This document shows, piece by piece, positions 3,662 through 33,188 of a stretch of DNA of 64,000 bases. The stretch comes from Burkholderia mayonis (GTDB lineage: Bacteria > Pseudomonadota > Gammaproteobacteria > Burkholderiales > Burkholderiaceae): the NCBI RefSeq assembly GCF_001523745.2, contig NZ_CP013387.1, positions 1,612,001 to 1,676,000 of the forward strand, given 5' to 3'. Below the pieces are notes generated by a model. The model was not told the DNA's origin. It saw nothing but the letters and a program-made list of their open reading frames with translations, and searched no databases. How positions within the stretch are numbered: the first letter of the stretch is position 1; every line of letters starts with the position of its first letter. The translations under genes and the position numbers were made by a program.

Positions 3662-4696
3662 TTGAAAGCCCTCGTACTCGAACAGGCGCGCGAGCTCGCG
3701 CTGCGCGACATCGACCTGCCGCTCGACGTCGGTCCGGCCGACGTCAAGATCCGCGTCCATACCGTCGGCGTCTGCGGCAGCGACGTCCACTACTACACGC
3801 ACGGCGGCATCGGCCCGTTCAGGGTCGACGCGCCGATGGTGCTCGGCCACGAAGCATCGGGCACGGTCGTCGAGGTCGGGCGCGACGTCACGTACCTGCG
3901 CGTCGGCGACCGCGTCTGCATGGAGCCCGGCATTCCGCGCCTCGATTCGAAGGCGACGCTGCGCGGCCTCTACAACCTCGATCCGTCGGTGCGCTTCTGG
4001 GCGACGCCGCCCGTGCACGGCTGCCTCACGCCCTACGTCGTGCATCCGGCGTCGTTCACGTACCGGCTGCCGGACAACGTGTCGTTCGCCGAAGGCGCGA
4101 TCGTCGAGCCGCTGTCGATCGGGCTGCAGGCCGCGAAAAAGGCGGCGATGAAGCCGGGCGACATCGCGGTCGTGATCGGCGCGGGGACGATCGGCGCAAT
4201 GACGGCGCTCGCCGCGCTCGCGGGCGGCGCCGCGCGCGTGATCCTCGCCGACGTCGTCAAGGAGAAGCTGTCGCTGTTCGCGTCGAACCGCGCGGTGACG
4301 ACCGTCGACGCGAGCACGCAGTCGCTCGCCGACGCGGTCGTGCACGCGACCGACGGCTGGGGCGCGGACGTCGTGTTCGAAGCGAGCGGCAACGCGAACG
4401 CCTATGCGGGCGTCATCGACCTGCTATGCCCGAACGGCTGCCTCGTGCTGATTGGGATGCCGCTCGATCCGGTGCCGCTCGACGTCGTCGCGTTGCAGGC
4501 GAAGGAAGCGCGGATCGAGTCGGTGTTCCGCTATGCGAACGTCTTCCCGCGCGCGCTCGCGCTGATCGCGTCCGGCGCGATCGACGTGAAGCCGTTCATC
4601 TCGCGCACGTTCCCGTTCTCGGACGGCCTGCGCGCATTCGAGGAAGCGGCGAGCGGGCATCCGCACGACGTGAAGATTCAGATCGAAATGGATTGA
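3662..4696 (+). CDS. Zinc-dependent MDR polyol dehydrogenase (sorbitol/xylitol dehydrogenase-like)
   Basis: Medium-chain dehydrogenase of 344 residues, NAD-dependent oxidation of a polyol at C2. The start is a TTG at 3662 with AAGGAG at 3650-3655. Catalytic zinc ligands are recognisable as Cys38 (GVCGSD) and His63-Glu64 (LGHEASG), with another Glu in IVEPLSIG. The Rossmann motif is [10 protein letters not shown]. The four cysteines that bind the structural zinc in many sorbitol dehydrogenases are missing: the segment after CMEPG contains no cysteine until the TPPVHGC region. Co-transcription with the importer and with xylulokinase downstream suggests a substrate giving D-xylulose, such as xylitol or D-arabitol; D-sorbitol to fructose is the alternative. 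Confidence 0.85.
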
Positions 4697-21213: not shown

Positions 21214-24200
21214 TCAATAAACGTCTCGCGCATAACGCTTGTCCTTTGCGAGCCGTGCGACGTAGTCCGCCGCCTGCTCGTCCGTCATCCCCCCATGCCG
21301 CGCGACGATCGTCTTCAACGCCGCGTCGACGTCCTTCGCCATGCGCGCCGCGTCGCCGCACACGTAGAAATGCGCGCCCTCCGCGAGCCACGCCCATAGC
21401 GCCGCGCCCTGTTCGAGCATCCGGTCCTGCACGTAGATCTTCTCTTTCTGGTCGCGCGAGAACGCGAGATCGAGCTGCGTCAGGAAACCGTCCGCCTGCA
21501 TCTGCGTGAGCTCGTCGCGGTAGTAAAAATCGGTGTCCGCATGCTGCTCGCCGAAGAACAGCCAGTTGCGCCCCTTCGCGCCGCGCGCGCGGCGTTCGTG
21601 CAGAAAGCCGCGAAACGGCGCGATGCCCGTGCCCGGCCCGACCATCACGATCGGCGCGTCGCCGCTTGCGGGCGGCCGGAAATGCGCGGACTTCTGCACG
21701 AACACCGGCACGCCCGCGTCGGCCGCGCGATCCGCGAGGAACGTCGACGCGACGCCCTTGCGCTGTCGCCGCCCGTTGCTGTATCGGACCGCCGACACGG
21801 TCAGATGGATCTCGCCGCGGTGCGCGTTCGGGCTCGACGCGATCGAATAGAGGCGCGGCTGCAGGCGCTTCAGCATCCCGGCGAGCTCGGCCGCCGACAG
21901 CTCGACAGGAAACTCGTGCAGCACGTCGGCGAGCTGCTGCCCCCACAGCCAGTTTTTCAGGTCCGCCTTGCGGTCGTCGCCGAGCAGGCGCTTCAGCGCG
22001 CCGCCCGCGCGGCTGCGCGACGCGATGAACGCGAGCGCGTCCGGATGCGGCCGCGTGATGTCGAGGTGCCTGGCGAGCGCGTCGGCAACGCGCAGCTCGC
22101 CGACGCCCGCGACCGTCACCGGCGTGTCCGGCTTCAGATGCGTGAGCGTCAGCAGCTCGTCGACGAGTTCCGGGCAGTTCGTCGGCCACACGCCGAGCGC
22201 GTCGCCCGTTTCGTACTCGATCGCCGCGCCGTCCGTCGACAGCGACACGTAGCGCGTATCCTTCGCCGCGCCCGGCTCGTTGAGCCGCAGGTTCGCGACG
22301 AGCCGCGACGCGGCCGGGCGCGTCTTCGTCGGAATCGCGCCCGACGGGATCATCCCGTCCGCCGGCACCGCGTGCAGCGCCGCGTCCTCTTCCTTGATTC
22401 GCGCGATCACGCGGTCGAGCCACGCGTCGGCGGCCGGCTGGTATTCGGCGTCGCAATCGACGCGCTCGACGAGGCGCGCCGCGCCGCGCTCCGCGAGCCG
22501 CGCGTCGAGCCGGCGGCCGTGGCCGCAGAACAGGTCGTAGTTGCGGTCGCCGAACGCGAGCACCGCGTAGCGGACGCCGTCGAGCCGCGCGGCGTCCGCC
22601 GCATCGAGCGCCGTCCAGAATTCCTGGCCGTTGTCGGGCGCGTCGCCGTCGCCGAACGTGCTCGTCATCAGCAGCACGTACTGCGCTTTCGCGAGCGCGG
22701 CGGCCGGATAGTCGGCCATGCACGCGACGCGGATCTCGAAGCCCGAATCCATCAATTGCGTCGCGTAACGCTCGGTCAGCGATTCGACGTTGCCCGTCTG
22801 CGACGCCCACAGCAGCACGACCTTCGGCCGCGTGCGCACGATCCGCACGCCGCTCGGCGCGGGCGACGCATCGGCCGACGCGGGCGACGCGGACACCGTC
22901 GAGGCGGCGCGTGCGCAAGCCGCTGCCGAAGCCTCGCCGGACACGCGGCTGAACAGCCCGGCGAGCAGCCCGTCGACCCACAGACGCGTGTCGCCCGCAA
23001 GCGGCGCGCTCGCCGGCAGCACCGGCACGCCGCCCGGCCGCCCGCCTTCGGCGGCGCGCAGGCCGCTGACGAAGCCTGCGACGTAGACGCGCTCCGCGTC
23101 GGTGAGCCGCGGCGCGCTCGCCGCAGCCGGAACGCCCAGCAGCGCGGCGAAGGTGTCGATATCGGACATGTCCAGTTCCTTGGGCGCGGCGTCGGCGGCT
23201 TCGAACGACGCCCCGGACACCGCGCCGGCCCGCGCATTGCGCGATTCGGCGAGCGACGCGCGGCCGTCATCGCCCGCATCGTCGACCGCGTCGACGCGCG
23301 CGAGCGCGACCGCGCAGAATTTGAGTCCGGGTTGCAGCGACACCGGATCGACCGCGTCGTTCGTGACCGCGTTCACGCACAGGTCGTCGCCGTACACGTC
23401 GTTCCAGTGCATCGGCGCGAAGCACGCGCCCGGCCGCACGCGATCGGTGACGACGGCGGGCAGCACCGCGCGGCCGCGCGCCGAGCGGATCTCGACCGCG
23501 TCCTTCGCCGCGATCGACAGCGCGGCCGCGTCGTCCGGATGGATCTCGACGAACGGACGCGGATTCAGCTTGTTCAGCATCGCGACCTTGCCCGTCTTCG
23601 TCATCGTATGCCATTGATGCTGCAGGCGGCCCGTATTCAGCACGATCGGGAATTCGGGCGTCGGCGTCTCGGCCGCCGCGGCGTGCGGACGCGCGAAGAA
23701 GCGCGCCTTGCCGGTCGGCGTCGGGAACGCGAGCGCCGGCGCCGCGCCGTCGGGCAGCGTCGCGCGCGGCCGGCTCGCGCCGTCGTTCAGATAGCGGATC
23801 GGATGGCGGTCCTGCCCGTCGTCCGGCGGGCAAGGCCATTGCAGCGGCGTGTCACGCAGCGCCGCGTGGCTCGCGCCGCGCAGGTCGTAGCCCGTCTTCG
23901 GATTCGCGAAGCGCTTGATCTCGTCGAACACATCGGAGGCCGAACGATAGTCGAACGCGTCGCCGTAGCCCATCTCGCGCGCGACCGCCGCGACGATCCG
24001 CCAGTCCGGCCACGCGCCGCCGGGCGGCTCGACCGCCTGCCGCATCAGCGTCAGGTTGCGCTCCGAGTTGATCATCACGCCTTCCGCTTCCGCCCACAGC
24101 GCGCCCGGCAGCAGGATGTCCGCGTAGCGGTTGGTTTCGGTGTCGAGGAACGCGTCCTGCACGATCACGACGTCCGCCGCCTGCAACCCCGCGATCACGT

Positions 24201-25440
24201 TCTTGCGGTTCGCGACGGTCGCCGCCGGATTCGTGCAGATGATCCAGCACGCCTTGACGTCGCCCGCGGCCATCTTCGCGAACAGGTCGACGGTGCCGCC
24301 GCCCGCATCCTTTCTGAGCGTGCCGGCCGGCAGGCTCCACACGTCCTCGACGAAGCGGCGGTCTTCGTCGTCGAGCGCCGACCGCTGGCCGGGCAGCCCC
24401 GGCCCCATGTAGCCCATCTCGCGGCCACCCATCGCGTTCGGCTGGCCGGTCAGCGAGAACGGGCCGCTGCCCGGCCGGCAGATCCTGCCCGTCGCGAGAT
24501 GCAGGTTGCAGATCGCGTTCGTGTTCCAGGTGCCGTGCGTGCTCTGGTTGAGCCCCATCGTCCAGCAGCTCGTCCACTCGCGCGCGTCGCCGATCCATTG
24601 CGCGGCGAGCCGGATGTCGGCTTCGGCGATGCCGGTGATCCCGGCGGCCTTGTCCGGCGCGTATGCGTCGAGAAAGCCGGGCATCGCGTCCCAGCCTTCG
24701 GTGTGCGCGGCGATGAAGTCCGCGTCGGTCTTGCCGTTCGCGTGCAGCAGATAGAGCAGGCCGTTCATCAGCGCGAGGTCGGCGCCCGGCTTGATCTGCA
24801 GGAAGAGATCCGCCTTGTCCGCGGTCGCGGTGCGGCGCGGATCGACGACGATCAGCTTCGCGCCCGCCTTCACGCGGTCCATCATCCGCAGGAACAGGAT
24901 CGGATGGCAGTCCGCCATGTTCGAGCCGATCACGAAGAACAGGTCCGCGCGATCGAAGTCCTGATACGAGCCGGGCGGGCCGTCCGCGCCGAGCGACAGC
25001 TTGTAGCCGCTCCCCGCGCTCGCCATGCAAAGCCGCGAGTTCGATTCGATGTGCGGCGTGCGCACGTAGCCTTTCGCGAGCTTGTTGACGAGATACTGCG
25101 CTTCGAGCGACATCTGGCCCGACACGTAGAACGCGAGCGCGTCGGGGCCGTGCGCGTCGAGCGCCGCGCGCAGCCGGCGCGCGGTCTCGGCGATCGCGTC
25201 GGCGATCGGCACGGGCGCCGGATCGCGGTCGCGCGCGTCGCGCACGAACGCGCGCTCCAGGCGGCCCGCGTTGCGCAGCGCGACGTGCGCCGACGAGCCC
25301 TTCGTGCACAGCCGGCCGAAGTTGGCCGGATGCTCGGTGTCGCCGGACACCTTGACCACCTCGCCGTCCTCGACGTGCAGCACCATCCCGCAGCCGACGC
25401 CGCAGTACGGGCACACCGTCTTCACGCTCGCGCTCGCCAT
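21214..25440 (-). CDS. nasA: Assimilatory nitrate reductase fused to a CysJ-type flavoprotein reductase
   Basis: Fusion of 1408 residues. Residues 1-700 are a molybdopterin bis-MGD nitrate reductase: an N-terminal 4Fe-4S site (CPYCGVGCG, then GRLCTKG), EFPIVLNTGRLQHQWHT and the C-terminal cofactor-binding fold. A linker of about 180 alanine-rich residues follows. A flavodoxin domain comes next (LLWASQTGNVESL, LMTSTFGDGDAPDNG), then an NADPH-cytochrome P450/sulfite-reductase-type FAD/NADPH half (RLYSIASSPNAH, GPGTGIAPFRGFLHERR) ending YARDVY. The fusion lets the enzyme draw electrons straight from NADPH to reduce nitrate to nitrite in the cytoplasm. Last gene of narK-nirB-nirD-nasA. Confidence 0.93.
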   Translation of the reverse strand: MASASVKTVCPYCGVGCGMVLHVEDGEVVKVSGDTEHPANFGRLCTKGSSAHVALRNAGRLERAFVRDARDRDPAPVPIADAIAETARRLRAALDAHGPDALAFYVSGQMSLEAQYLVNKLAKGYVRTPHIESNSRLCMASAGSGYKLSLGADGPPGSYQDFDRADLFFVIGSNMADCHPILFLRMMDRVKAGAKLIVVDPRRTATADKADLFLQIKPGADLALMNGLLYLLHANGKTDADFIAAHTEGWDAMPGFLDAYAPDKAAGITGIAEADIRLAAQWIGDAREWTSCWTMGLNQSTHGTWNTNAICNLHLATGRICRPGSGPFSLTGQPNAMGGREMGYMGPGLPGQRSALDDEDRRFVEDVWSLPAGTLRKDAGGGTVDLFAKMAAGDVKACWIICTNPAATVANRKNVIAGLQAADVVIVQDAFLDTETNRYADILLPGALWAEAEGVMINSERNLTLMRQAVEPPGGAWPDWRIVAAVAREMGYGDAFDYRSASDVFDEIKRFANPKTGYDLRGASHAALRDTPLQWPCPPDDGQDRHPIRYLNDGASRPRATLPDGAAPALAFPTPTGKARFFARPHAAAAETPTPEFPIVLNTGRLQHQWHTMTKTGKVAMLNKLNPRPFVEIHPDDAAALSIAAKDAVEIRSARGRAVLPAVVTDRVRPGACFAPMHWNDVYGDDLCVNAVTNDAVDPVSLQPGLKFCAVALARVDAVDDAGDDGRASLAESRNARAGAVSGASFEAADAAPKELDMSDIDTFAALLGVPAAASAPRLTDAERVYVAGFVSGLRAAEGGRPGGVPVLPASAPLAGDTRLWVDGLLAGLFSRVSGEASAAACARAASTVSASPASADASPAPSGVRIVRTRPKVVLLWASQTGNVESLTERYATQLMDSGFEIRVACMADYPAAALAKAQYVLLMTSTFGDGDAPDNGQEFWTALDAADAARLDGVRYAVLAFGDRNYDLFCGHGRRLDARLAERGAARLVERVDCDAEYQPAADAWLDRVIARIKEEDAALHAVPADGMIPSGAIPTKTRPAASRLVANLRLNEPGAAKDTRYVSLSTDGAAIEYETGDALGVWPTNCPELVDELLTLTHLKPDTPVTVAGVGELRVADALARHLDITRPHPDALAFIASRSRAGGALKRLLGDDRKADLKNWLWGQQLADVLHEFPVELSAAELAGMLKRLQPRLYSIASSPNAHRGEIHLTVSAVRYSNGRRQRKGVASTFLADRAADAGVPVFVQKSAHFRPPASGDAPIVMVGPGTGIAPFRGFLHERRARGAKGRNWLFFGEQHADTDFYYRDELTQMQADGFLTQLDLAFSRDQKEKIYVQDRMLEQGAALWAWLAEGAHFYVCGDAARMAKDVDAALKTIVARHGGMTDEQAADYVARLAKDKRYARDVY

Positions 25441-25471: not shown

Positions 25472-25825
25472 TCACGCGGCGATCCACACGTAGCCGTCCT
25501 CGATGCGCGACGGATACGCGTTCACCGACTTGTCCGGCGCTTCGAGGCACTCGCCCGTGCGCAGGTCGAAGTGATGCTTGTAGAGCGGCGACGCGACGAC
25601 GACCCGCTCGCCGAGGCTGCCGATCAGCCCGCGCGACAGCACGGCGGCCTGCGAATGCGGATCGACGTTGCCGATCGCGAACGCGCGGCCGCACCCGCCG
25701 CCGTCGTCGACGTGGAATACGGCGACCTGCTCGCCATTGACGAGCGCGCACACGCCCGTGTTCGGCACGATGTCGTCGAGCGCGCAGACGGGCGTCCACG
25801 CGGATGCGTCTCGATGGCTGCTCAT
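25472..25825 (-). CDS. nirD: Nitrite reductase small subunit
   Basis: Rieske-fold NirD of 117 residues, partner of NirB in NAD(P)H-dependent reduction of nitrite to ammonium. Family blocks VCALDDIVPNTGVCALV, AVFHVDD and SPLYKHHFDLRTGECL are present. As in other NirD proteins the Rieske cysteine-histidine pairs are absent, so no iron-sulfur cluster is expected. It lies 37 bp after nirB and 31 bp before nasA. Confidence 0.93.
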   Translation of the reverse strand: MSSHRDASAWTPVCALDDIVPNTGVCALVNGEQVAVFHVDDGGGCGRAFAIGNVDPHSQAAVLSRGLIGSLGERVVVASPLYKHHFDLRTGECLEAPDKSVNAYPSRIEDGYVWIAA

Positions 25826-25862: not shown

Positions 25863-28439
25863 TCAAGCCGTTTCGGTCGTGATTTCCGCCTCGGCCTCGC
25901 GCAGGCGGCTCGCGTCGGCCGCGTGCGCGTCGCGTTCGTCCAACGTCGCCGGGCGGATCTGGCCGCGCGCCTCGACGAACGCGATCGTCGAATCGGACGC
26001 GTCGCTGTTGACGAAATGGCGGAAGCGGCGGCGCGTCGCCGGATCGGTGACGGCTTTCTTCCATTCGCATTCGTACGTGTCGACGACGTGCTGCATCTCG
26101 GCCTCGAGCTCCGCCGCGAGCCCGAGCTTGTCGTGGACGACGACGTCGATCAGGTAGTCGAGCCCGCCTTCGAGGTTGTCGCGCCACACGCTCGTGCGCT
26201 GCAGCCGGTCGGCGGTGCGGACGTAGAACATCAGGAAGCGGTCGATGTAGCGAACGAGCGTGTCGCGGTCGAGGTCGGCGGCGAGCAGTTCCGCGTGGCG
26301 CGGCTTCATCCCGCCGTTGCCGCACACGTACAGGTTCCAGCCCTTCTCGGTCGCGATCACGCCGATGTCCTTGCCCTGCGCCTCCGCGCATTCGCGCGTG
26401 CAGCCGGATACGCCGAATTTCAGCTTGTGCGGCGCGCGCAGCCCCTTGTAGCGGTTCTCGAGCGCGATCGCGAGGCCGACCGAATCGCCGACGCCGTAGC
26501 GGCACCACGTCGAGCCGACGCACGATTTCACCGTGCGCACCGACTTGCCATATGCGTGGCCCGATTCGAAGCCGGCCGCGATCAACGCTTCCCAGATGAG
26601 CGGCAACTGCTCGACGCGCGCGCCGAACAGATCGACGCGCTGACCGCCCGTGATCTTCGTGTAGAGGCCGTATTTCTTCGCGACCTGGCCGACCGCGATC
26701 AGCCCTTCGGGCGTGACCTCGCCGCCCGGCATCCGCGGCACGACCGAATACGTGCCGTCGCGCTGGATGTTCGCGAGGAAGTAGTCGTTCGAATCCTGCA
26801 GGCCCGCGTGCTCCTTCTTCAGCACGAATTCGTTCCAGCACGATGCGAGGATGCCCGCGACGGCCGGCTTGCAGACGTCGCAGCCGAGGCCGCGGCCATG
26901 CTTCTTCAACAGCGCGCCGAACGTCTTGATCCGCTCGACGCGCACCAGGTGATAGAGCGCCTGCCGCGAATGCGGGAAGTGCTCGCACAGGTGGTTGTCG
27001 ACGTCGAGGCCCTGCTTCTTCATCTCGGCCTTCATCACCTGCGTGACGAGCGGCACGCAGCCGCCGCACGACGTGCCCGCGCCGGTGCAGCGCTTCAGCG
27101 CGCCGATGCTCGCCGCGCCGCCCGCGACCGCTTCGCAGAGTTGCGCCTTCGTCACGTTGTTGCACGAGCAGATCTGCGCGGCGTCCGGCAGCGCGTCGAC
27201 GCCGAGCGCCGGCTTCGCGCCGCCGGACGCCTGCGGCAGGATCAGGAATTCCGGCGCGTCCGGCAGCTCGATCCGGTTCAGCATCATCTGCAGCAGCGTG
27301 CCGTACTCGGCCGCGTCGCCGACCATCACCGCGCCGAGCAGTTCCTTGCCGCATTCGGACACGACGAGCTTCTTGTAGACTGCTTTGCGCTCGTCGGCGA
27401 ACTGGTACGTGCGGCAGCCGGGCGTCTTGCCGTGCGCATCGCCGATGCTCGCGACGTCGACGCCCATCAGCTTGAGCTTCGTGCTCATGTCCGCGCCGGT
27501 GAACGCGCCGTCGCCGCCCGCGAACTGCTGCGCTACGACGCGCGCCATGTCGTAGCCGGGCGCGACGAGACCGAAGGTCTGGCCGTTCCACGCCGCGCAT
27601 TCGCCGATCGCGTAGATGTCCGCATCGCTCGTCCGGCAGTTGCTGTCGATCGCCACGCCGCCGCGCGTGCCGATCTCGAGCCCGCACTGCCGCGCGATCT
27701 CGTCGCGCGGCCGGATGCCCGCGGAGAACACGATCATGTCGGCGTCGAGATGCGTGCCGTCGGCGAATTCCATCCGGTGCGCGCCCGTCTCGCCGTCGAC
27801 GATCGCGAGCGTGTTCTTGCCCACGTGCACCCTCACGCCGAGCGCCTCGATCTTGCCGCGCAGCATCCGGCCGCCGCCTTCGTCGACCTGCACCGCCATC
27901 AGGCGCGGCGCGAACTCGACGACGTGCGTCGCGAGCCCCATGTCGCGCAGCGCCTTCGCGCATTCGAGACCGAGAAGGCCCCCGCCGACGACGACACCCG
28001 ACTTCGCGCGCACGCCGCACGCCTGCATCGCTTCGAGATCCTCGATCGTTCGGTACACGAAGCAATCGGCGCGCTCGCGGCCTGGCACGGGCGGCACGAA
28101 CGGCGTCGAGCCGGTCGCGAGCACGAGCTTGTCGTATGCGAGCGTCTCGCCCGTCGACAGCGTGACCGTGTGCGCGTCGCGATCGATCGCGACCGCCTTC
28201 GTGTCGAGCAGCAGACGGAAGTTCGGATGACGCTCGAAGAAGCCCGGCTCGACGAGCGACAGATCGTCGGCCGACTTGCCCGCGAAGAATTCGGACAGAT
28301 GGACGCGGTCGTACGCGGGACGCGGCTCCTCGCAGATCACCGCGACCTGCGGCGCGGCCGACGCGTCCCGCGCGCCGGCCGCGATGCATTCGAGCAGCTT
28401 GTGACCGACCATCCCGTGACCGATGACGACGATTTTCAT
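25863..28439 (-). CDS. nirB: Nitrite reductase large subunit
   Basis: Sirohaem enzyme of 858 residues. In order it has an N-terminal FAD/NAD(P)H oxidoreductase fold (VIGHGMVGHKLLE, VVVGGGLLGLECAKAL), a BFD-like 2Fe-2S domain (CSCNNVTKAQLCEAV and CTGAGTSCGGC), and the nitrite/sulfite reductase half-domains. The 4Fe-4S/sirohaem cysteines are in CVGSTWCRYG and GVSGCTRECAEAQ. It reduces nitrite to ammonium in the cytoplasm. The sirohaem it needs is supplied by the methyltransferase encoded on the other strand of the same locus. The start ATG at 28439 is 15 bp after the narK stop. Confidence 0.95.
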   Translation of the reverse strand: MKIVVIGHGMVGHKLLECIAAGARDASAAPQVAVICEEPRPAYDRVHLSEFFAGKSADDLSLVEPGFFERHPNFRLLLDTKAVAIDRDAHTVTLSTGETLAYDKLVLATGSTPFVPPVPGRERADCFVYRTIEDLEAMQACGVRAKSGVVVGGGLLGLECAKALRDMGLATHVVEFAPRLMAVQVDEGGGRMLRGKIEALGVRVHVGKNTLAIVDGETGAHRMEFADGTHLDADMIVFSAGIRPRDEIARQCGLEIGTRGGVAIDSNCRTSDADIYAIGECAAWNGQTFGLVAPGYDMARVVAQQFAGGDGAFTGADMSTKLKLMGVDVASIGDAHGKTPGCRTYQFADERKAVYKKLVVSECGKELLGAVMVGDAAEYGTLLQMMLNRIELPDAPEFLILPQASGGAKPALGVDALPDAAQICSCNNVTKAQLCEAVAGGAASIGALKRCTGAGTSCGGCVPLVTQVMKAEMKKQGLDVDNHLCEHFPHSRQALYHLVRVERIKTFGALLKKHGRGLGCDVCKPAVAGILASCWNEFVLKKEHAGLQDSNDYFLANIQRDGTYSVVPRMPGGEVTPEGLIAVGQVAKKYGLYTKITGGQRVDLFGARVEQLPLIWEALIAAGFESGHAYGKSVRTVKSCVGSTWCRYGVGDSVGLAIALENRYKGLRAPHKLKFGVSGCTRECAEAQGKDIGVIATEKGWNLYVCGNGGMKPRHAELLAADLDRDTLVRYIDRFLMFYVRTADRLQRTSVWRDNLEGGLDYLIDVVVHDKLGLAAELEAEMQHVVDTYECEWKKAVTDPATRRRFRHFVNSDASDSTIAFVEARGQIRPATLDERDAHAADASRLREAEAEITTETA

Positions 28440-28454
28440 GATGGATGCCCTCTG

Positions 28455-29780
28455 TTAATTCGTGAAGCCGTTCGCGGCGAGCGCGCGGTCGCGCAGCGCC
28501 GCCTCGCGAGCCTTGTGCTCGGCGCTGAACCGTACCGCGAGCGCGCAGAACGCGGAAACGGTGACGAATAGGCCTAGCAGCGTGAGCGTTTGTTGGATAT
28601 CGCCGACGCCCTTCATCAGGAAGCCGGCCGCGACCGCGCCGACATTGCCGCCCGCGCCGACGATCCCCGCGACGCCGCCGAGCGCGCGGCGGTCGATGAA
28701 CGGCACGAGCGCGTACGTCGCGCCGCACGCCATGTGCGTGAAGAGACCGAACGCGACCATCGCGGCGACGGCGATCGCGACGCTGCCCGCATGCGCGAAC
28801 CCCAGGAGCCCGAGCCCCTCGCCGACGATCAGCATGAACAGCAGCGTCGCGCGCACGTCGAGCCCCCGGCGCGCGGCGACGCGATCGGACAGCCAGCCGC
28901 CCAGCGCGCGCGCGAACAGCGCGAGAAGGCCGAAGATGCCGGCGGCGAGGCCCGCGTCCTTCAGCGACAGCTGGAAGTGATTGACGTAATAGAGCGCGGC
29001 GATGTTGTGCATGAACACCTCGACGCCGAAGCACGCGCCATAGGTGACGAACAGCATCCACACGCGGTAGTTCGCGCACGCGGCGGAAAAGCTCGCGAAG
29101 CCGCCCTTCTTGCCGCTGTCGATCGTCACGCCGCGCGCGCGCAGCGCGACGAAATCGCCCTGCGGGCAATCCTGCGTGCAGCGCCAGTAGACGACCGCCA
29201 TCACGAGCATCGCGACGCCCGGCGCTGCGAGCGCGGCGCGCCAAGCAGACGCGTCGCCGAACCCGAGCATCAGCGCGGCGGCGATCAGGAGCGGCATCGC
29301 GGCCTGCGCGGCGCCCGCGCCCGCGTTGCCCCAGCCGGCGGCCGTCGCGTTCGCGGTGCCGACGACGTTCGGCGCGAACATCACCGACGTGTGGTACTGC
29401 GTGATCACGAAGCTCGCGCCGATCGCGCCGATGCCGAGGCGGCACAGCAGGAACGTCAGGTAGTCATGCGAGAACGACACCGCGAACACCGGAATCGCGC
29501 CGAGCGCGAGCAGCCCCGCATAAACGCGGCGCGGGCCGAAGCGGTCGCACAGCGGACCGACGACGAGCCGCACGGCGATCGTCGCCGCGACGGCCGCGAT
29601 GTTGACGTTCGCGACCTGATCGGCGCTCAGCCCGAATTCGCGTGCGATGAGCGGCATCAGCGGCGCGCACGCGAACCACGCGAAGAAACACACGAAGAAC
29701 GCCATCCACGTCAGATGAAAGGCGCGCATCGGCGCGGTGCGCCAGTCGAGAAGGTCGATGCGGGTGGCTTTGTCGGACAT
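28455..29780 (-). CDS. narK: Nitrate/nitrite transporter, NarK family (MFS)
   Basis: MFS permease of 441 residues with about twelve membrane helices. The nitrate-porter signature is visible as AGWGNAGAGAAQAAMP, and the intracellular loop GPLCDRFGPRR is typical. It imports nitrate for assimilation and heads the nirB-nirD-nasA operon. The ATG at 29780 has GGTGAG five bases upstream. That site lies only a few bases after a strong intrinsic terminator in the leader, so expression depends on antitermination. A NasA/NarK-type symporter fits the assimilatory context better than a respiratory antiporter. Confidence 0.93.
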   Translation of the reverse strand: MSDKATRIDLLDWRTAPMRAFHLTWMAFFVCFFAWFACAPLMPLIAREFGLSADQVANVNIAAVAATIAVRLVVGPLCDRFGPRRVYAGLLALGAIPVFAVSFSHDYLTFLLCRLGIGAIGASFVITQYHTSVMFAPNVVGTANATAAGWGNAGAGAAQAAMPLLIAAALMLGFGDASAWRAALAAPGVAMLVMAVVYWRCTQDCPQGDFVALRARGVTIDSGKKGGFASFSAACANYRVWMLFVTYGACFGVEVFMHNIAALYYVNHFQLSLKDAGLAAGIFGLLALFARALGGWLSDRVAARRGLDVRATLLFMLIVGEGLGLLGFAHAGSVAIAVAAMVAFGLFTHMACGATYALVPFIDRRALGGVAGIVGAGGNVGAVAAGFLMKGVGDIQQTLTLLGLFVTVSAFCALAVRFSAEHKAREAALRDRALAANGFTN

Positions 29781-29790
29781 CTTGTCTCAC

Positions 29791-29847
29791 CAAACGAAAA
29801 CGGCGTCCTGCGAACCCGGTCGAGTGACCGGATGCGTAGGACGCCGT
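29791..29847 (-). terminator. Leader attenuator in front of narK
   Basis: On the minus strand AACGGCGTCCT (29847-29837) pairs perfectly with AGGACGCCGTT (29808-29798). Nearly continuous inner pairing through CCGGTC-ACTC-GACCGG extends the stem, and TTTTCGTTT follows. This is an intrinsic terminator just before the narK ribosome site. Its 5' arm overlaps the second ANTAR hairpin, so the two structures exclude each other. Confidence 0.85.
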
Positions 29848-29914
29848 TGCCCAGGAAGCCCGTTGCCGGGCGGATCGATATTCGGTGCTGCGAAGCGAAT
29901 CGTCATTGACTCGC
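29838..29914 (-). promoter_or_regulatory. ANTAR-type tandem-hairpin RNA target, narK leader
   Basis: Two hairpins with six-base loops having A at loop position 1 and G at position 4, the known ANTAR recognition rule. Hairpin 1 (29914-29895) has a 7-bp stem GCGAGTC/GATTCGC and loop AATGAC. Hairpin 2 (29851-29838) has stem GGGC/GTCC and loop AACGGC. Hairpin 2 uses bases of the terminator 5' arm, so binding of NasT there should block termination. A separate GCCCG-GCAA-CGGGC hairpin lies between them. Confidence 0.75.
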
Positions 29915-29928
29915 CCGAAGATCGCTAG

Positions 29929-29943
29929 GCAAGCGGCGTGCCA
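29929..29943 (-). promoter_or_regulatory. Sigma-54 promoter of the narK-nirBD-nasA operon
   Basis: Minus-strand TGGCACG-CCGC-TTGC matches the sigma-54 consensus (TGGCACG, four bases, TTGC) at every defined position. Transcription should begin about 12 bases after the -12 GC, near 29917, which puts the first ANTAR hairpin at the very 5' end of the message. Confidence 0.85.
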
Positions 29944-30031
29944 GCAAGCCGAAAACGAGATGCGGCGCGGCATTGCGCCGACGTGCACGGTTTTCGCGCC
30001 GCGCGCCGACGATGCGCGGTGAGGCAGTGAA

Positions 30032-30046
30032 GCACAGATCTGGTGC
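30032..30046. promoter_or_regulatory. NtrC-type binding site between divergent nitrate promoters
   Basis: GCAC-AGATCT-GGTGC fits the NtrC site pattern GCAC-N6-GGTGC seen at glnA. It is about 115 bp upstream of the predicted narK start and about 315 bp upstream of the predicted start on the other strand, both workable distances for an enhancer serving two sigma-54 promoters. Confidence 0.7.
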
Positions 30047-30335
30047 GATGCAGCACTGTCCGCGTGCGACATGTCGGCGCGGGGGCGGGTGCGGCGGCGG
30101 GTTTTGGGCCGCGCGCCGCGCGTCGGCGGCGAGGCCGCGCGATCGATGGCGCGCGCGTCGTGCGGCGCGTGTGCCGACGCTTGCGCCACGGCTTCGCCCG
30201 CGCCGGCGAGGCGGCACCCGCGCGCCGACGCCGGTCTGAGCGCTCGCGCATCGCGCGCGACGCCTGCTCGCCCGCGACGCGCGCGAGCACGATCGCGCCA
30301 TCTCCGCGCCGCTTCGGCGCGTGCGCGCCCGCCGC

Positions 30336-30350
30336 TGGCCCGGATATTGC
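30336..30350 (+). promoter_or_regulatory. Sigma-54 promoter of the sirohaem-methyltransferase/nasTS side
   Basis: TGGCCCG-GATA-TTGC differs from the sigma-54 consensus by one base in the -24 element. The predicted start near 30361 lies just before the first ANTAR hairpin at 30366, the same layout as on the narK side. Confidence 0.75.
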
Positions 30351-30365
30351 TGGATGTGAAGCGTC

Positions 30366-30446
30366 ATCGGCAACGACGCCGGTGCAGGATCGCGCAGCAT
30401 CTCCGGATCGTCCGCCGACGGACGGTCCACTTGGACAACGGTGTCC
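30366..30446 (+). promoter_or_regulatory. ANTAR-type tandem-hairpin RNA target, methyltransferase leader
   Basis: Hairpin 1 (30366-30383) has stem ATCGGC/GCCGGT and loop AACGAC. Hairpin 2 (30433-30446) has stem GGAC/GTCC and loop AACGGT. Both loops have A1 and G4. A 9-bp stem with a CCGA loop (30406-30427) separates them. Hairpin 2 again overlaps the 5' arm of a terminator. Confidence 0.75.
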
Positions 30447-30498
30447 TACGCATCCGGCCGCTTCGCCGACCGCGTGCGCAGGACGCCGTTCTTTTTTT
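30437..30498 (+). terminator. Leader attenuator in front of the uroporphyrinogen methyltransferase gene
   Basis: AACGGTGTCCT (30437-30447) pairs with AGGACGCCGTT (30480-30490) apart from one G-T wobble. An inner GC-rich stem and seven Ts (30492-30498) follow. The sequence is closely related to the narK attenuator across the whole hairpin, although the two genes are on opposite strands. Confidence 0.85.
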
Positions 30499-30551
30499 GG
30501 CGAAGCGCATTCGCCGCAGACGCGCCGCCCGGGCGGCATGGGGAGACGAAG

Positions 30552-31374
30552 ATGAACACGATGGGCAAAGTCACGCTGCTCGGCGCCGGCCCCGGCGATC
30601 TGGACCTTCTGACGCTCAAGGCCGCGAAGGCGCTCGCGGCCGCCGACGTGCTGCTGCTCGACGATCTCGTCAATCCGGACATCGCCGCGCTCGCGCCGCG
30701 CGCGCGCGTGATCCGCGTCGGCAAGCGCGGCGGCTGCCGGTCGACGCCGCAGGCGTTCATCGAGCGGCTGATGTGCCGCCACGCGCTGCGCGGCGCGCAC
30801 GTCGTGCGCGCCAAGGGCGGCGACGTGCTGCTGTTCGGCCGCGCCGGCGAAGAGATCGCTGCGTTGCGCGCGGCGGGCGTGCAGTATGAGATCGTCAACG
30901 GGATCTCGTCGGGCTTCGCGGCCGCGGCGAGCCTCGGCGTGTCGCTCACGCATCGCGATCACTGCCAGGGCGTGACGTTCGTCACCGCGCACCTGCAGGA
31001 TCACGGCGAGCCCGACTGGGCGAGCCTCGCCGCGGCCGGCACGACGCTCGCGATCTACATGGGAATGAGCCGCATCGACCGGATCGCCGCGGGGCTGCGC
31101 TCGGCGCTCGACGCCGCGACGCCCGCCGCCGTCGTCCAGTGGGCGGGCACGCCGGCCGAGCGGCGCTGGACCGGCACGCTCGGGCATCTCGCGTCCGGCG
31201 CAGCCGAAGCGGGGCTCGGCAGCCCGGCCGTGATCTTCGTCGGCCGCGCGATCGGCGAAGCGCTCGCGATCGACGGCGCGCACGCGACGCTGAATGCGAA
31301 TGCGCGCGCGCTTTCGGGCGATGCGCACGCCGCGTTGCACGCGGCCGATCGCCGCCGAATCCCGCACGCGGCCT

Positions 31375-31376
<2 letters not shown>
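30552..31376 (+). CDS. cobA: Uroporphyrinogen-III C-methyltransferase (sirohaem synthesis)
   Basis: SUMT of 274 residues, adding two methyl groups from S-adenosylmethionine to uroporphyrinogen III to give precorrin-2, the precursor of the sirohaem in NirB. Start ATG at 30552 with GGGGAG six bases upstream. Motifs: LLGAGPGDLDLLTLKA, the DDLVNPDI and RVGKRGG blocks, AKGGDVLLFGRAGEE and the GISSGFAAAASLG loop. Only the methyltransferase domain is present; the oxidase/chelatase part of CysG is not. Control by an ANTAR leader couples sirohaem supply to nitrate use. Confidence 0.93.
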
Positions 31377-31419
<43 letters not shown>

Positions 31420-31512
31420 ATGCCGGCGCTTGCCCGCCGCGTCCGCGCGCATATGGTAAAAAAACGCATGGGCGAGCGCCGCCGCGACGCGCCCGCCTCT
31501 TCCGCCTGACAC

Positions 31513-32109
31513 ATGGGATCGACCGACCAATCCTCCAAGCTGCGCGTGCTGCTCGTCACCGACACCGACAAGCCGATCGGCGAGCTGCGCGACACGCTCG
31601 CGCGCCTCGGCTACGAGATGCTCGACGAGGTCGCGACGCCCGCGCGGCTGCCCGCGGCCGTCGAGGAGCAGCGGCCGGACGTCGTGATCATCGACACCGA
31701 ATCGCCGTCGCGCGACACGCTCGAGCAGCTCGCGGTGATGAACGCGACCGCGCCGCGCCCCGTGCTGATGTTCAGCCACGACGCCGACCAGCAGCTGATC
31801 CGCGCGGCGGTCGGCGCGGGCGTGAGCGCGTATCTGATCGAGGGTCTGTCCGCCGGGCGGCTCGCGCCGATCCTCGAAGTCGCGCTCGCGCGCTTCTCGC
31901 ACGACGAGCAGTTGCGCCAGCGGCTCGCCGAAGTCGAGAGCGAGCTCGCCGACCGCAAGCTGATCGACCGCGCGAAGCGCATGCTGATGGACCGCCGCAA
32001 GCTGTCCGAACAGGACGCGTACGCGACGCTGCGCCGCAGCGCGATGGATCAGGGCATCCGGATCGTCGAGGCCGCCCGCCGGCTGCTCGCGGCGCACACG
32101 CAATCTTGA
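31513..32109 (+). CDS. nasT: ANTAR-domain antiterminator NasT
   Basis: Response-regulator-like protein of 198 residues. Residues 8-125 are a receiver-type domain (LLVTDTDKPIGELRDTL, DVVIIDTESPSRDTLEQL). A coiled linker follows (LRQRLAEVESELADRKLID), then the C-terminal RNA-binding ANTAR domain (AKRMLMDRRKLSEQDAYATL, MDQGIRIVEAARRLL). In known NasS-NasT systems, nitrate releases NasT from NasS and NasT then binds tandem hexaloop hairpins in nas leaders to prevent termination. Two such leaders lie 1-2 kb away. The last 4 bp overlap a possible TTG start of nasS. Confidence 0.93.
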   Translation: MGSTDQSSKLRVLLVTDTDKPIGELRDTLARLGYEMLDEVATPARLPAAVEEQRPDVVIIDTESPSRDTLEQLAVMNATAPRPVLMFSHDADQQLIRAAVGAGVSAYLIEGLSAGRLAPILEVALARFSHDEQLRQRLAEVESELADRKLIDRAKRMLMDRRKLSEQDAYATLRRSAMDQGIRIVEAARRLLAAHTQS

Positions 32110-32126
32110 TCGAAGGTGCAATACGC

Positions 32127-33188
32127 ATGAACACAGCGCGCATCAACACAGCGACTCTCGACGCACCGGAACGCCGCCGTCTGCGCATCGGCTTCGTCGC
32201 GCTGAGCGACGCCGCGCCGCTCGTCGCCGCGCAGCGGCTCGGGCTCGGCGAACGCCATGGCCTCACGCTCGAGCTGTGCCGGCAGCCGTCGTGGGCGAGC
32301 ATCCGCGACAAGCTGCTGTCGGGCGAGCTCGACGCCGCGCACGCGCTGCATGGGCTCGTCTACGGCGTGCAGCTCGGCATCGGCGGGCCGCGCGCCGACA
32401 TGGCGGTGCTGATGGTGCTGAACCGCAACGGCCAGGCGATCACGTTCTCGAGCCGGCTCGCCGACGCCTACCGCGCGTCGGGCGACCTGAAGGCCGCGCT
32501 CGCGACGCTCGGCCGGCGCCCCGTGTTCGCGCAGACGTTCCCGACCGGCACGCACGCGATGTGGCTGTATCACTGGCTCGCAGCGCGCGGCGTCGATCCG
32601 CTGCGCGACATCCGCAGCGTCGTGATTCCGCCGCCGGAGATGGTCGGCGCGCTCGCGGCAGGCGAGCTCGACGGGCTATGCGTCGGCGAGCCGTGGAACG
32701 CGGTCGCCGAGGCGCGCGGCGCGGGCAGGACGGTCGCGGCGACGAGCGAAGTCTGGCCCGATCATCCGGAAAAGGCGCTCGCGTGCCGGCGCGAGTTCGT
32801 CGCGCTGTATCCGAACACAGCGCGCCTGCTGGTGCGCACGTTGCTCGATGCGTGCGAATGGCTCGACGACTCGAACCACCGGGTGACGGCGGCCGCATGG
32901 CTGGCCGAGCCGGACGCGATCGGCGTGCCGGTCGGGCAGATTGCGCCGCGGCTGCTCGGCGACTACGGCGCGGGGCCGTTTGCGCAGCCGCCTGCGCCGA
33001 TCAAGTTCCACGAGCACGGAACGGTGAATCGGCCGGCCGCGAGCGATGGGATGTGGTTCCTGTCGCAGTACCGGCGCTGGGGGATGATGAGCGGGGACGT
33101 CGACGATGCGGCGGTGGCGGGCGGCATCGCGCAGACGGCGATCTATGACGAGGCGGCGGCGCTGGCGGGGGCGAAGCGCGTCGATTGA
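32127..33188 (+). CDS. nasS: Cytoplasmic nitrate sensor NasS
   Basis: NrtA/NasF-like nitrate-binding protein of 353 residues without a signal peptide, as expected of the cytoplasmic sensor NasS that sequesters NasT when nitrate is absent. I use the ATG at 32127, which has GAAGGTG upstream; a TTG at 32106 overlapping the nasT stop (TTGA) would add seven residues. Family blocks: RIGFVALSDAAPLVAAQRLG, SGELDAAHALHGLVYGV, RPVFAQTFPTGTHAMWL-like and CVGEPWNAVAEA. It pairs with NasT as the last gene of this unit. Confidence 0.9.
   Translation: MNTARINTATLDAPERRRLRIGFVALSDAAPLVAAQRLGLGERHGLTLELCRQPSWASIRDKLLSGELDAAHALHGLVYGVQLGIGGPRADMAVLMVLNRNGQAITFSSRLADAYRASGDLKAALATLGRRPVFAQTFPTGTHAMWLYHWLAARGVDPLRDIRSVVIPPPEMVGALAAGELDGLCVGEPWNAVAEARGAGRTVAATSEVWPDHPEKALACRREFVALYPNTARLLVRTLLDACEWLDDSNHRVTAAAWLAEPDAIGVPVGQIAPRLLGDYGAGPFAQPPAPIKFHEHGTVNRPAASDGMWFLSQYRRWGMMSGDVDDAAVAGGIAQTAIYDEAAALAGAKRVD

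What the first reader, a model, noticed from the sequence alone, without database searches (positions are those of the whole stretch)
29791..30498. Two divergent nitrate-assimilation leaders carry matched ANTAR hairpins and attenuators
Seen: both leaders contain two hairpins with six-base loops of the form A-N-N-G-N-N (AATGAC and AACGGC on the minus strand; AACGAC and AACGGT on the plus strand). In each the second hairpin shares bases with the 5' arm of an 11-bp terminator stem followed by a T-rich tract. The terminator hairpins of the two leaders are near copies of each other on opposite strands. Known: ANTAR proteins such as NasT/NasR bind tandem hexaloops with A1 and G4 and block termination. 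Inference: NasT, encoded 1 kb away, controls both narK-nirBD-nasA and the sirohaem methyltransferase gene, giving a bidirectional antitermination locus, perhaps also autoregulating nasTS by read-through.
Basis: partly seen in the sequence, partly recalled or inferred. Interest (0 to 1): 0.82.

Follow-up and report, generated by a model that had tools for sequence, protein, structure and literature searches.

The report
Mirrored nitrate antiterminator leaders in Burkholderia
Two back-to-back RNA switches of a known kind most likely let one nitrate-released protein turn on both the nitrate-use genes and a facing operon that makes a needed cofactor enzyme and the protein itself; the kind of switch is known, while the mirrored arrangement and its history look like a new variant.

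Summary
Both leaders carry two hexaloop hairpins with A1 and G4, and hairpin 2 shares bases with an 11-bp terminator stem and T tract. The divergent pair occurs in 59 of 65 genus genomes. Hairpin-1 stems covary across the two leaders, and models trained on one leader type rank the other second in the window, one of them narrowly. I add a sigma-54 motif upstream of each leader and two NtrC-like sites between them, in 35 of 36 spacers. The best explanation is NtrC/sigma-54 initiation plus NasT antitermination on both strands, with cobA-nasT-nasS as a self-amplifying operon. Published B. cenocepacia RNA-seq shows cobA, nasT and nasS NtrC-dependent (PMC5491218). Two corrections: the cobA-side U tract is not general (6 of 34 cobA leaders have at least 5 T in 8, against 35 of 35 narK leaders), and the 'near copy' terminators are a clade trait, a narK-type terminator on a cobA-type promoter and hairpin 1 in the window. 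NasT binding is untested. New variant of a known kind (ANTAR/NalA-type leaders).

The parts
29929..29943 (-). sigma-54 (-24/-12) type promoter motif of the narK-nirBD-nasA operon, TGGCAC-N5-TTGC
   Evidence: Sequence; motif present on this side in 35 of 36 spacers
29893..29916 (-). narK leader hairpin 1: 9-bp stem, hexaloop AATGAC
   Evidence: compensatory changes
29858..29871 (-). narK leader middle hairpin GCCCG-GCAA-CGGGC between hairpins 1 and 2
   Evidence: fold; sequence largely kept in alignment
29839..29852 (-). narK leader hairpin 2 (putative antiterminator): 4-bp stem, hexaloop AACGGC
29799..29848 (-). narK leader intrinsic terminator, 11-bp outer stem, sharing 29848-29839 with hairpin 2
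29792..29800 (-). narK leader T tract TTTTCGTTT (its first two T are the last bases of the stem)
   Evidence: Sequence; at least 5 T in 8 in 35 of 35 narK leaders
28455..29780 (-). narK, nitrate/nitrite MFS transporter; followed by nirB 25863-28439, nirD 25472-25825, nasA-flavoprotein fusion 21214-25440
30032..30046 (.). NtrC-like site GCACAGATCTGGTGC
   Evidence: pair at 21-bp spacing in 35 of 36 spacers
30053..30067 (.). second NtrC-like site GCACTGTCCGCGTGC
30336..30350 (+). sigma-54 (-24/-12) type promoter motif of the cobA-nasT-nasS operon, TGGCCC-N5-TTGC
   Evidence: Sequence; motif present on this side in 35 of 36 spacers
30365..30384 (+). cobA leader hairpin 1: 7-bp stem, hexaloop AACGAC
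30405..30428 (+). cobA leader middle hairpin, 10 bp
   Evidence: fold
30433..30446 (+). cobA leader hairpin 2 (putative antiterminator): 4-bp stem, hexaloop AACGGT
30437..30490 (+). cobA leader intrinsic terminator, 11-bp outer stem with one G-U, narK type in sequence
30492..30498 (+). cobA leader T tract TTTTTTT
   Evidence: 7 T in the 8 bases after the stem
30552..31376 (+). cobA-type uroporphyrinogen-III C-methyltransferase (sirohaem pathway)
   Evidence: PF00590; NF004790 286.8 bits over cut-off 198; TIGR01469 252.8 over 185
31513..32109 (+). nasT, receiver + ANTAR domain
   Evidence: PF03861 59.1 bits over 27.3; PF00072 34.2 over 30.2
32124..33188 (+). nasS, periplasmic-binding-protein-like nitrate sensor (name by position beside nasT and by domain)
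   Evidence: PF13379 284.7 bits

Best explanation
The 29.8-30.5 kb spacer is a divergent control region. Phosphorylated NtrC bound to two sites between the operons activates a sigma-54 promoter on each side under nitrogen limitation (promoters and sites shown as motifs; NtrC dependence published for a relative). Hairpin 1 forms at or near the 5' end of each transcript, and the loop of hairpin 2 follows about 60 nt later (59 and 65 nt; conserved structure shown, 5' ends inferred). Without nitrate, NasS holds NasT and each transcript stops at the terminator whose 5' arm overlaps hairpin 2 (inferred from NasT systems elsewhere). With nitrate or nitrite, NasT is freed, binds the two hexaloops, holds hairpin 2 and so prevents the terminator (inferred). 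Output is co-ordinated: transporter and reductases on one side, sirohaem enzyme plus NasT and NasS on the other, so NasT raises its own operon (inferred). In this clade the cobA-side terminator is of narK type on a cobA-type promoter and hairpin 1, probably through copying between the two inverted leaders (inferred from a mosaic pattern).
For: Hairpins, overlap and T tracts. A1/G4 invariant. Covariation over a mixed alignment of 36 of the 64 HP1-to-HP2 pieces extracted: 98.7% of cells paired against 74.6% shuffled, 97 two-sided cells against 41.7, score 0.626 against 0.213, 0 of 500 shuffles for each. Models without window rows, each trained on one leader type, rank the other leader second in the window: 24.9 bits, E 0.0002, next hit 16.9; and 24.0 bits, E 0.0013, next hit 23.0. 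Divergent pair in 59 of 65 genus genomes, gap 260-456 bp. Sigma-54 motifs on both sides and paired NtrC-like sites in 35 of 36 spacers; hairpin-1 loop 35-38 nt after the motif start in all 85 candidates of the script, which allowed 22-59. ANTAR protein next door. PMC5491218 (passages): log2 ntrC mutant/wild type is -11.4 for the methyltransferase gene, -8.1 nasT, -4.2 the nitrate-binding protein gene after it, -6.6 the transporter, -6.5 nirB. Mosaic.
Against: 28 of 34 cobA leaders have fewer than 5 T in 8, so cobA-side termination may be weak or of another kind there. In one search the number of pairs with a two-sided change (6) is reached by 341 of 500 shuffles, and within cobA leaders alone the hairpins hardly vary (one such pair, 77 of 500 shuffles). 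R2 did not list the cobA leader in the whole-genome search (150 of 11,036 candidates scored), and R3's margin is slim. In L003 and L004 the cobA hairpin 1 lies 73, not 36, nt after the motif start. Rfam P11 reaches 23 of 70 bits. The RNA-seq was done after a low-ammonium shift, with no nitrate mentioned in the passages read, yet cobA and nasT were strongly expressed in wild type compared with mutant, so nitrate may not be needed for read-through in that species. A -10-like box in 12 of 37 cobA-nasT gaps could be a separate nasT promoter. Nothing shows NasT binding.
Confidence: 0.8

Rival explanations
1. Only the narK leader is a real NasT attenuator. The cobA-side element binds NasT but hardly terminates, so cobA-nasT-nasS is driven mainly by NtrC, keeping NasTS available before nitrate arrives.
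For: Fewer than 5 T in 8 in 28 of 34 cobA leaders while the hairpins stay. Strong NtrC-dependent cobA and nasT expression in low ammonium without mention of nitrate (PMC5491218). One genome lost the cobA leader but kept the promoter motif (L013/L140).
Against: In the window the cobA terminator is complete (11 pairs, 7 T of 8), and it looks replaced by a narK-type one rather than left to decay. HP1 and HP2 loops keep A1 and G4 in 31 of 31 aligned cobA leaders.
Confidence: 0.3
2. nasTS has its own constitutive promoter in the cobA-nasT gap, so there is no meaningful NasT self-amplification.
For: A box such as CTATCATGAA or CTATAGTGAA (pattern TATNNTGAA) recurs in 12 of 37 cobA-nasT gaps (not in the window, which has CATATGGTAAAA). 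NasT must exist before induction.
Against: nasT and the following gene fall 8.1 and 4.2 log2 units without NtrC (PMC5491218), as expected of read-through from the cobA promoter. One search lists no plus-strand terminator-like site between cobA and nasT and no sigma-70 match, though that scan also missed the two long-loop terminators.
Confidence: 0.3
3. The near-identity of the two terminators is an old duplicate kept in this clade, not a later copy from one leader to the other.
For: The whole leaders are homologous (cross-model hits), so a duplication probably happened at some time. The terminator tree is too weak to decide.
Against: Outgroup cobA terminators (3) resemble the rest-of-genus cobA type (0.31) more than narK types (0.20-0.23), while the clade's are narK-like (0.50-0.51 against 0.23); the 20 nearest terminators outside the clade are narK for 5 of 5 clade members.
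Confidence: 0.25
4. The hairpins are chance products of G+C-rich sequence.
For: Plus-strand hexaloop count alone is only P 0.039.
Against: Invariant A1/G4, covariation and genus-wide conservation.
Confidence: 0.01

Closest known systems
NalA, the NasT-controlled leader of the Pseudomonas nirBD operon (described in review PMC12830290, passages; Romeo 2012 seen only as a title in reference lists)
   Same: Sigma-54/NtrC promoter, leader hairpin terminator, NasT antitermination, NasS sequestering NasT, nitrate assimilation genes downstream; the title places cobA in the P. aeruginosa operon
   Different: There one leader serves one operon that includes cobA. Here cobA sits in a separate divergent operon with nasTS and has its own leader.
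Rfam RF00625 (P11, Pseudomonas sRNA)
   Same: Sub-threshold match over the whole model to the minus-strand leader
   Different: 23 bits against a gathering score of 70; in 65 genus genomes only 1 of 27 listed P11 matches overlaps a narK leader (G027) and none is over the cut-off
ANTAR target RNAs of EutV, NasR, AmiR (PMC3369931, passages)
   Same: Stem-loops with hexaloops, A1 and G4, the second overlapping a terminator
   Different: Protein is NasT, thought to be freed from NasS; two mirrored elements in one spacer
Paracoccus nasTS-nasA leader (PMC3795266 passages; PMC5424462 passages)
   Same: NasT binds the nasA leader RNA; NtrC controls nasT expression
   Different: nasTS has its own NtrC-controlled promoter; no cobA and no second leader in the passages seen

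Membership tests
ANTAR target RNA (dual hexaloop) | Two hairpins with six-base loops, A at 1 and G at 4 | tested here: met
ANTAR target RNA (dual hexaloop) | Stems conserved as structure (compensatory changes) | tested here: met
   Hairpin 1. Hairpin 2 hardly varies (one pair A-U/G-U), so it neither supports nor opposes
ANTAR target RNA (dual hexaloop) | Second hairpin overlaps an intrinsic terminator with a U tract | tested here: met
   Both leaders of the window. Across the loci compared: at least 5 T in 8 in 35 of 35 narK leaders but only 6 of 34 cobA leaders
ANTAR target RNA (dual hexaloop) | ANTAR protein in the same genome | tested here: met
   NasT, PF03861 59.1 bits; one further weak match, 31.1 bits
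ANTAR target RNA (dual hexaloop) | Bound by the ANTAR protein, antitermination | not testable with these tools
   Needs binding or transcription assay
Rfam RF00625 P11 | Score at or above the gathering score (70 bits) | tested here: not met
   23 bits, E 0.025; 0 of 65 genus genomes over the cut-off
NalA-type nirBD leader | Sigma-54 promoter with NtrC sites upstream of the leader | tested here: met
   As motifs, in 35 of 36 spacers, the window's included; NtrC dependence published for B. cenocepacia (PMC5491218)
NalA-type nirBD leader | NasT-dependent expression of the operon | not tested
   No such data for Burkholderia seen in the listings and passages
NasT (ANTAR response regulator) | Receiver-like domain plus C-terminal ANTAR domain, beside nasS | tested here: met

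The most novel reading that the evidence does not exclude
The cobA-nasT-nasS operon is a NasT-driven positive feedback loop whose gain evolves by terminator exchange. In many Burkholderia the cobA-side terminator has lost its U tract (loop loosened), while in the window's clade a full terminator has been copied in from the facing narK leader (loop tightened), so the two divergent leaders act as donor and acceptor of switch parts.
Probability: 0.3. Interest if true: 0.62.

Novelty: new variant of a known kind. Interest (0 to 1): 0.45.

Why it matters
It suggests how an ANTAR regulon can be kept together when an operon is split: a copy of the leader stands before the separated genes, here facing the first and near the same NtrC sites, and the regulator itself comes under the second leader. 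The natural series (complete terminator, U tract lost, whole leader lost with promoter motif kept) lets the role of the U tract and of NasT feedback be tested by comparison. It also gives a Burkholderia-trained model for ANTAR targets where no Rfam family reaches its threshold.

Tried and rejected
Rfam scan for a ready-made ANTAR family: nothing at gathering thresholds in the window; only P11 and two unrelated families sub-threshold around the spacer. P11 over 65 genus genomes gives 27 listed matches, 1 of which (G027) overlaps a narK leader, and it also rings below cut-off in 3 of 14 control genomes, so I do not file the leader under P11.

Mixed alignment A3 misaligned hairpin 1 of the cobA leaders and was dropped; A4 was made from pieces cut at hairpin 1 and hairpin 2. 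A4 uses 36 of 64 extracted pieces (33 narK, 31 cobA, identical pieces once); L003 and L004 cobA were left out because they exceed the length limit (221 and 237 nt), L070 cobA because its hairpin 1 did not match the search pattern, L013 cobA because the leader is absent. R2 and R3 use 17 of 33 narK and 17 of 31 cobA pieces.

The terminator comparison uses 41 loci in which the script found both leader types; 4 others (L024, L028, L033, L134) were mislabelled by the script and dropped. still carried those four; one search repeats it without them. The terminator tree is weak: the smallest clade with all 41 narK terminators (support 0.915) holds 7 of 41 cobA ones, WIN, L125 and L126 but also L006, L128, L129 and L130, and not L003 or L004. 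I rely on pairwise scores.

Order-wide search with R1 found 3 of 150 genomes, the window's own among them; with strict filters and at most 30 candidates scored per genome it says little about absence. The simple promoter and terminator scan missed both terminators and covers no sigma-54 promoters.

Ramesh 2012 (PMC3369931) names Burkholderia among genomes with predicted ANTAR RNAs (passage); its supplementary tables could not be opened, so this locus may be listed there.

Full report
WHAT IS THERE. The window lies in a two-contig genome of 6.59 Mb (G000, C2:1612001-1676000). Minus strand: narK (28455-29780), nirB, nirD and a 1408-residue nitrate reductase-flavoprotein fusion. Plus strand: a uroporphyrinogen-III methyltransferase gene (30552-31376, here cobA), nasT (31513-32109; receiver PF00072 and ANTAR PF03861 at 59.1 bits) and nasS (32124-33188). 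The 0.77-kb spacer between narK and cobA holds both leaders.

THE HAIRPINS. In each leader the loop and 3' arm of hairpin 2 lie in the 5' arm of an 11-bp terminator stem followed by TTTTCGTTT or CTTTTTTT. Folding alone prefers the terminators (terminator segments at z -5.30 and -5.18), so hairpin 2 should need a stabilising protein; that is the ANTAR logic. The two leaders are homologous: alignment score 118 against a maximum of 65 in 500 shuffled pairs. By chance alone the plus-strand hexaloops would be unremarkable (P 0.039), so conservation was needed.

CONSERVATION. A scan of named genomes with NasT gave 77 loci. Divergent narK and cobA-nasT-nasS appear in 34 of 77: L003-L033 except L009, L074-L076 (all Burkholderia) and L070 (Chitinasiproducens). 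L009 and L034 start at contig ends; the other 41 show no such pair in the DNA held. In 35 narK leaders (window included) hairpin 1 pairs in 98.1% of cells with three two-sided pairs (38 of 500 shuffles reach three), and the terminator stem in 100%. In 31 of 34 cobA leaders hairpin 1 pairs in 99.5% of cells, with one two-sided pair (77 of 500 shuffles), and the terminator stem in 86.4%. Treating both leaders as one element (A4, 36 of 64 extracted pieces), hairpin-1 pairs change on both sides in 6 of 7 positions while the closing pair and A1/G4 stay: 98.7% paired against 74.6% in shuffles, 97 two-sided cells against 41.7 and covariation score 0.626 against 0.213, 0 of 500 shuffles reaching any of these; the bare number of pairs with a two-sided change (6) is reached by 341 of 500. 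The shuffles do not keep relatedness; slid structures, which do, fall to 24-51% pairing.

INDEPENDENT MODELS. R2 (17 narK leaders without the window) finds the window's narK leader (89.3 bits) and, second in 64 kb, the cobA leader (24.9 bits, E 0.0002; next 16.9). R3 (17 cobA leaders without the window) finds the cobA leader (42.3 bits) and, second, the narK leader (24.0 bits, E 0.0013), though the next hit is close at 23.0. R1 (both types, window rows included, so circular for the window) finds only these two above noise in the whole genome (69.8 and 48.6 bits; next 20.0, E 1.45; 150 of 19,377 candidates scored). R2 over the whole genome lists the narK leader and not the cobA leader, with 150 of 11,036 candidates scored.

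HOW WIDE. R1 hits 62 of 65 genus genomes; several of these are the same records as loci that trained R1, so this is a census, not an independent test. In 59 of 65 a minus-strand element lies to the left of a plus-strand one, 260-456 bp apart. Of the six others, three have no hit (G016, G024, G057) and three have one: G047 has lost the cobA leader but kept its promoter motif (L140, same locus as L013), and G038 and G042 (same loci as L003 and L004) have a cobA hairpin 1 about 200 nt upstream of hairpin 2 and 73 nt after the promoter motif. In the family, 121 of 299 genomes have a hit at E 0.05, the genus included; of 18 loci inspected, L154, L157, L166 and L162 (the same locus as L070) have the divergent layout, and the script found both elements with promoters in L157 and L166 and one in L154. 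These lie outside the window's genus by the tool's numbering, so the mirrored layout is probably older than the genus.

PROMOTERS. Each leader is preceded by a sigma-54 type motif (TGGCAC-N5-TTGC at 29943-29929 minus; TGGCCC-N5-TTGC at 30336-30350 plus). Of 36 spacers at least 300 bp long (window included), 35 have it on both sides, and the same 35 have two GCAC-N7-GTGC sites 21 bp apart between them; the exception is L009, cut by a contig end. Of 20 further loci, 18 were parsed, and L129 and L130 show only one strict NtrC-like site. The script found two complete elements in 38 of 49 sources, one in 9, none in 2; the hairpin-1 loop starts 35-38 nt after the motif start in all 85 candidates, 22-59 having been allowed. 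With a usual sigma-54 start (recalled) hairpin 1 is at or next to the 5' end.

PUBLISHED SUPPORT. In an ntrC mutant of B. cenocepacia H111 shifted to 0.3 mM ammonium, log2 changes are -11.4 for the methyltransferase gene I35_5550, -8.1 nasT I35_5551, -4.2 the nitrate-binding protein gene I35_5552, -6.6 the transporter, -6.5 nirB, -6.8 the nitrite reductase small subunit and -6.7 nitrate reductase (PMC5491218, passages). This fits one NtrC-dependent cobA-nasT-nasS unit. Against a simple model, no nitrate is mentioned in the passages for that experiment, so read-through in that species may not need it. NasT binding to leader RNA is shown in Paracoccus (PMC3795266, passages), and NalA of Pseudomonas is described as a sigma-54/NtrC-transcribed leader bound by NasT (PMC12830290, a review, passages). 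Searches for Burkholderia NasT, ANTAR and such leaders (several listings capped at 20 papers) showed no paper that I could see to describe this locus; subscription papers and supplements were out of reach.

The U tract is a fixed feature of the narK side (35 of 35 with at least 5 T in 8) but not of the cobA side (6 of 34: window, L003, L004, L005, L023, L070). L125 and L126, unnamed relatives with the same kind of cobA leader, also have seven T in a row. And 'near copies' is a clade trait. In the window, L125, L126, L003 and L004 (here called the clade, grouped by these leaders, not by a genome tree), the cobA terminator scores on average 0.45-0.55 against narK terminators of 36 other loci and 0.19-0.27 against their cobA terminators; for the window, L125 and L126 the promoter plus hairpin-1 segment is cobA-type (0.39-0.46 against 0.11-0.16), while in L003 and L004 that segment resembles neither. 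The 20 nearest terminators outside the clade are narK for all 5 members, and the 3 outgroup cobA terminators lean to the ordinary cobA type. The simplest account is copying of the terminator from the facing leader in an ancestor of this clade; the tree on 62 nt is too weak to prove it.

FEEDBACK. nasT follows cobA after 136 bp; one search lists no plus-strand terminator-like site there, but that scan also missed the two real ones, so this is weak. If the operon is joint, NasT should raise its own synthesis. A -10-like TATNNTGAA box in 12 of 37 gaps (not in the window, which has CATATGGTAAAA) may add basal NasTS. Whether the loop matters is open.

VERDICT. Binding, termination and feedback remain inferences.

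Noticed in passing
L013 and L140 (Burkholderia sp. Bp8963), cobA side: The cobA sigma-54 motif is kept but the ANTAR leader is gone: a natural leaderless variant.
   Followed up: partly
L003 and L004 (B. singularis, Burkholderia sp. TSV86), cobA leader: HP1-to-HP2 span is 221 and 237 nt instead of about 80, and hairpin 1 lies 73 nt after the promoter motif.
   Followed up: partly
L009 (B. stagnalis) upstream of cobA: The held contig starts in a long run of GGCTTG/GGCTTC repeats where the leader should be; it may be an assembly edge.
   Followed up: no
L156 (element at 3709-3784, minus): ANTAR-type element with a sigma-54 motif ahead of an ORF containing SGQVIGELINLSGRQRMLSQRI, which looks like a PilJ-type sensor (from memory, no family search).
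   Followed up: no
L159 and L163: An R1 element lies between a distant nasT-like gene (42% to the window's) and a nasS/nrtA-like gene (49%), so relatives may have further NasT-type circuits.
   Followed up: no
window 21214-25440 (minus): Assimilatory nitrate reductase fused to a CysJ-like flavoprotein module, 1408 aa.
   Followed up: no
cobA-nasT gaps of relatives; window 31377-31512: A recurrent -10-like TATNNTGAA box in 12 of 37 gaps, perhaps a basal nasT promoter; the window has CATATGGTAAAA instead.
   Followed up: partly
G000:C2:1100072-1100230 (L002, minus): Second ANTAR-domain match in the genome, 31.1 bits in a 69-residue open frame, with no convincing gene in the ORF list.
   Followed up: partly
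window 30441-31376 (plus): A GTG-started reading frame of 311 aa runs in frame into cobA from inside the leader; automatic annotation could start cobA there and hide the leader.
   Followed up: no
B. cenocepacia I35_5549 (PMC5491218): A 'hypothetical protein' numbered between narK and cobA falls 11.1 log2 units without NtrC; it may be a leader transcript called as a gene.
   Followed up: no
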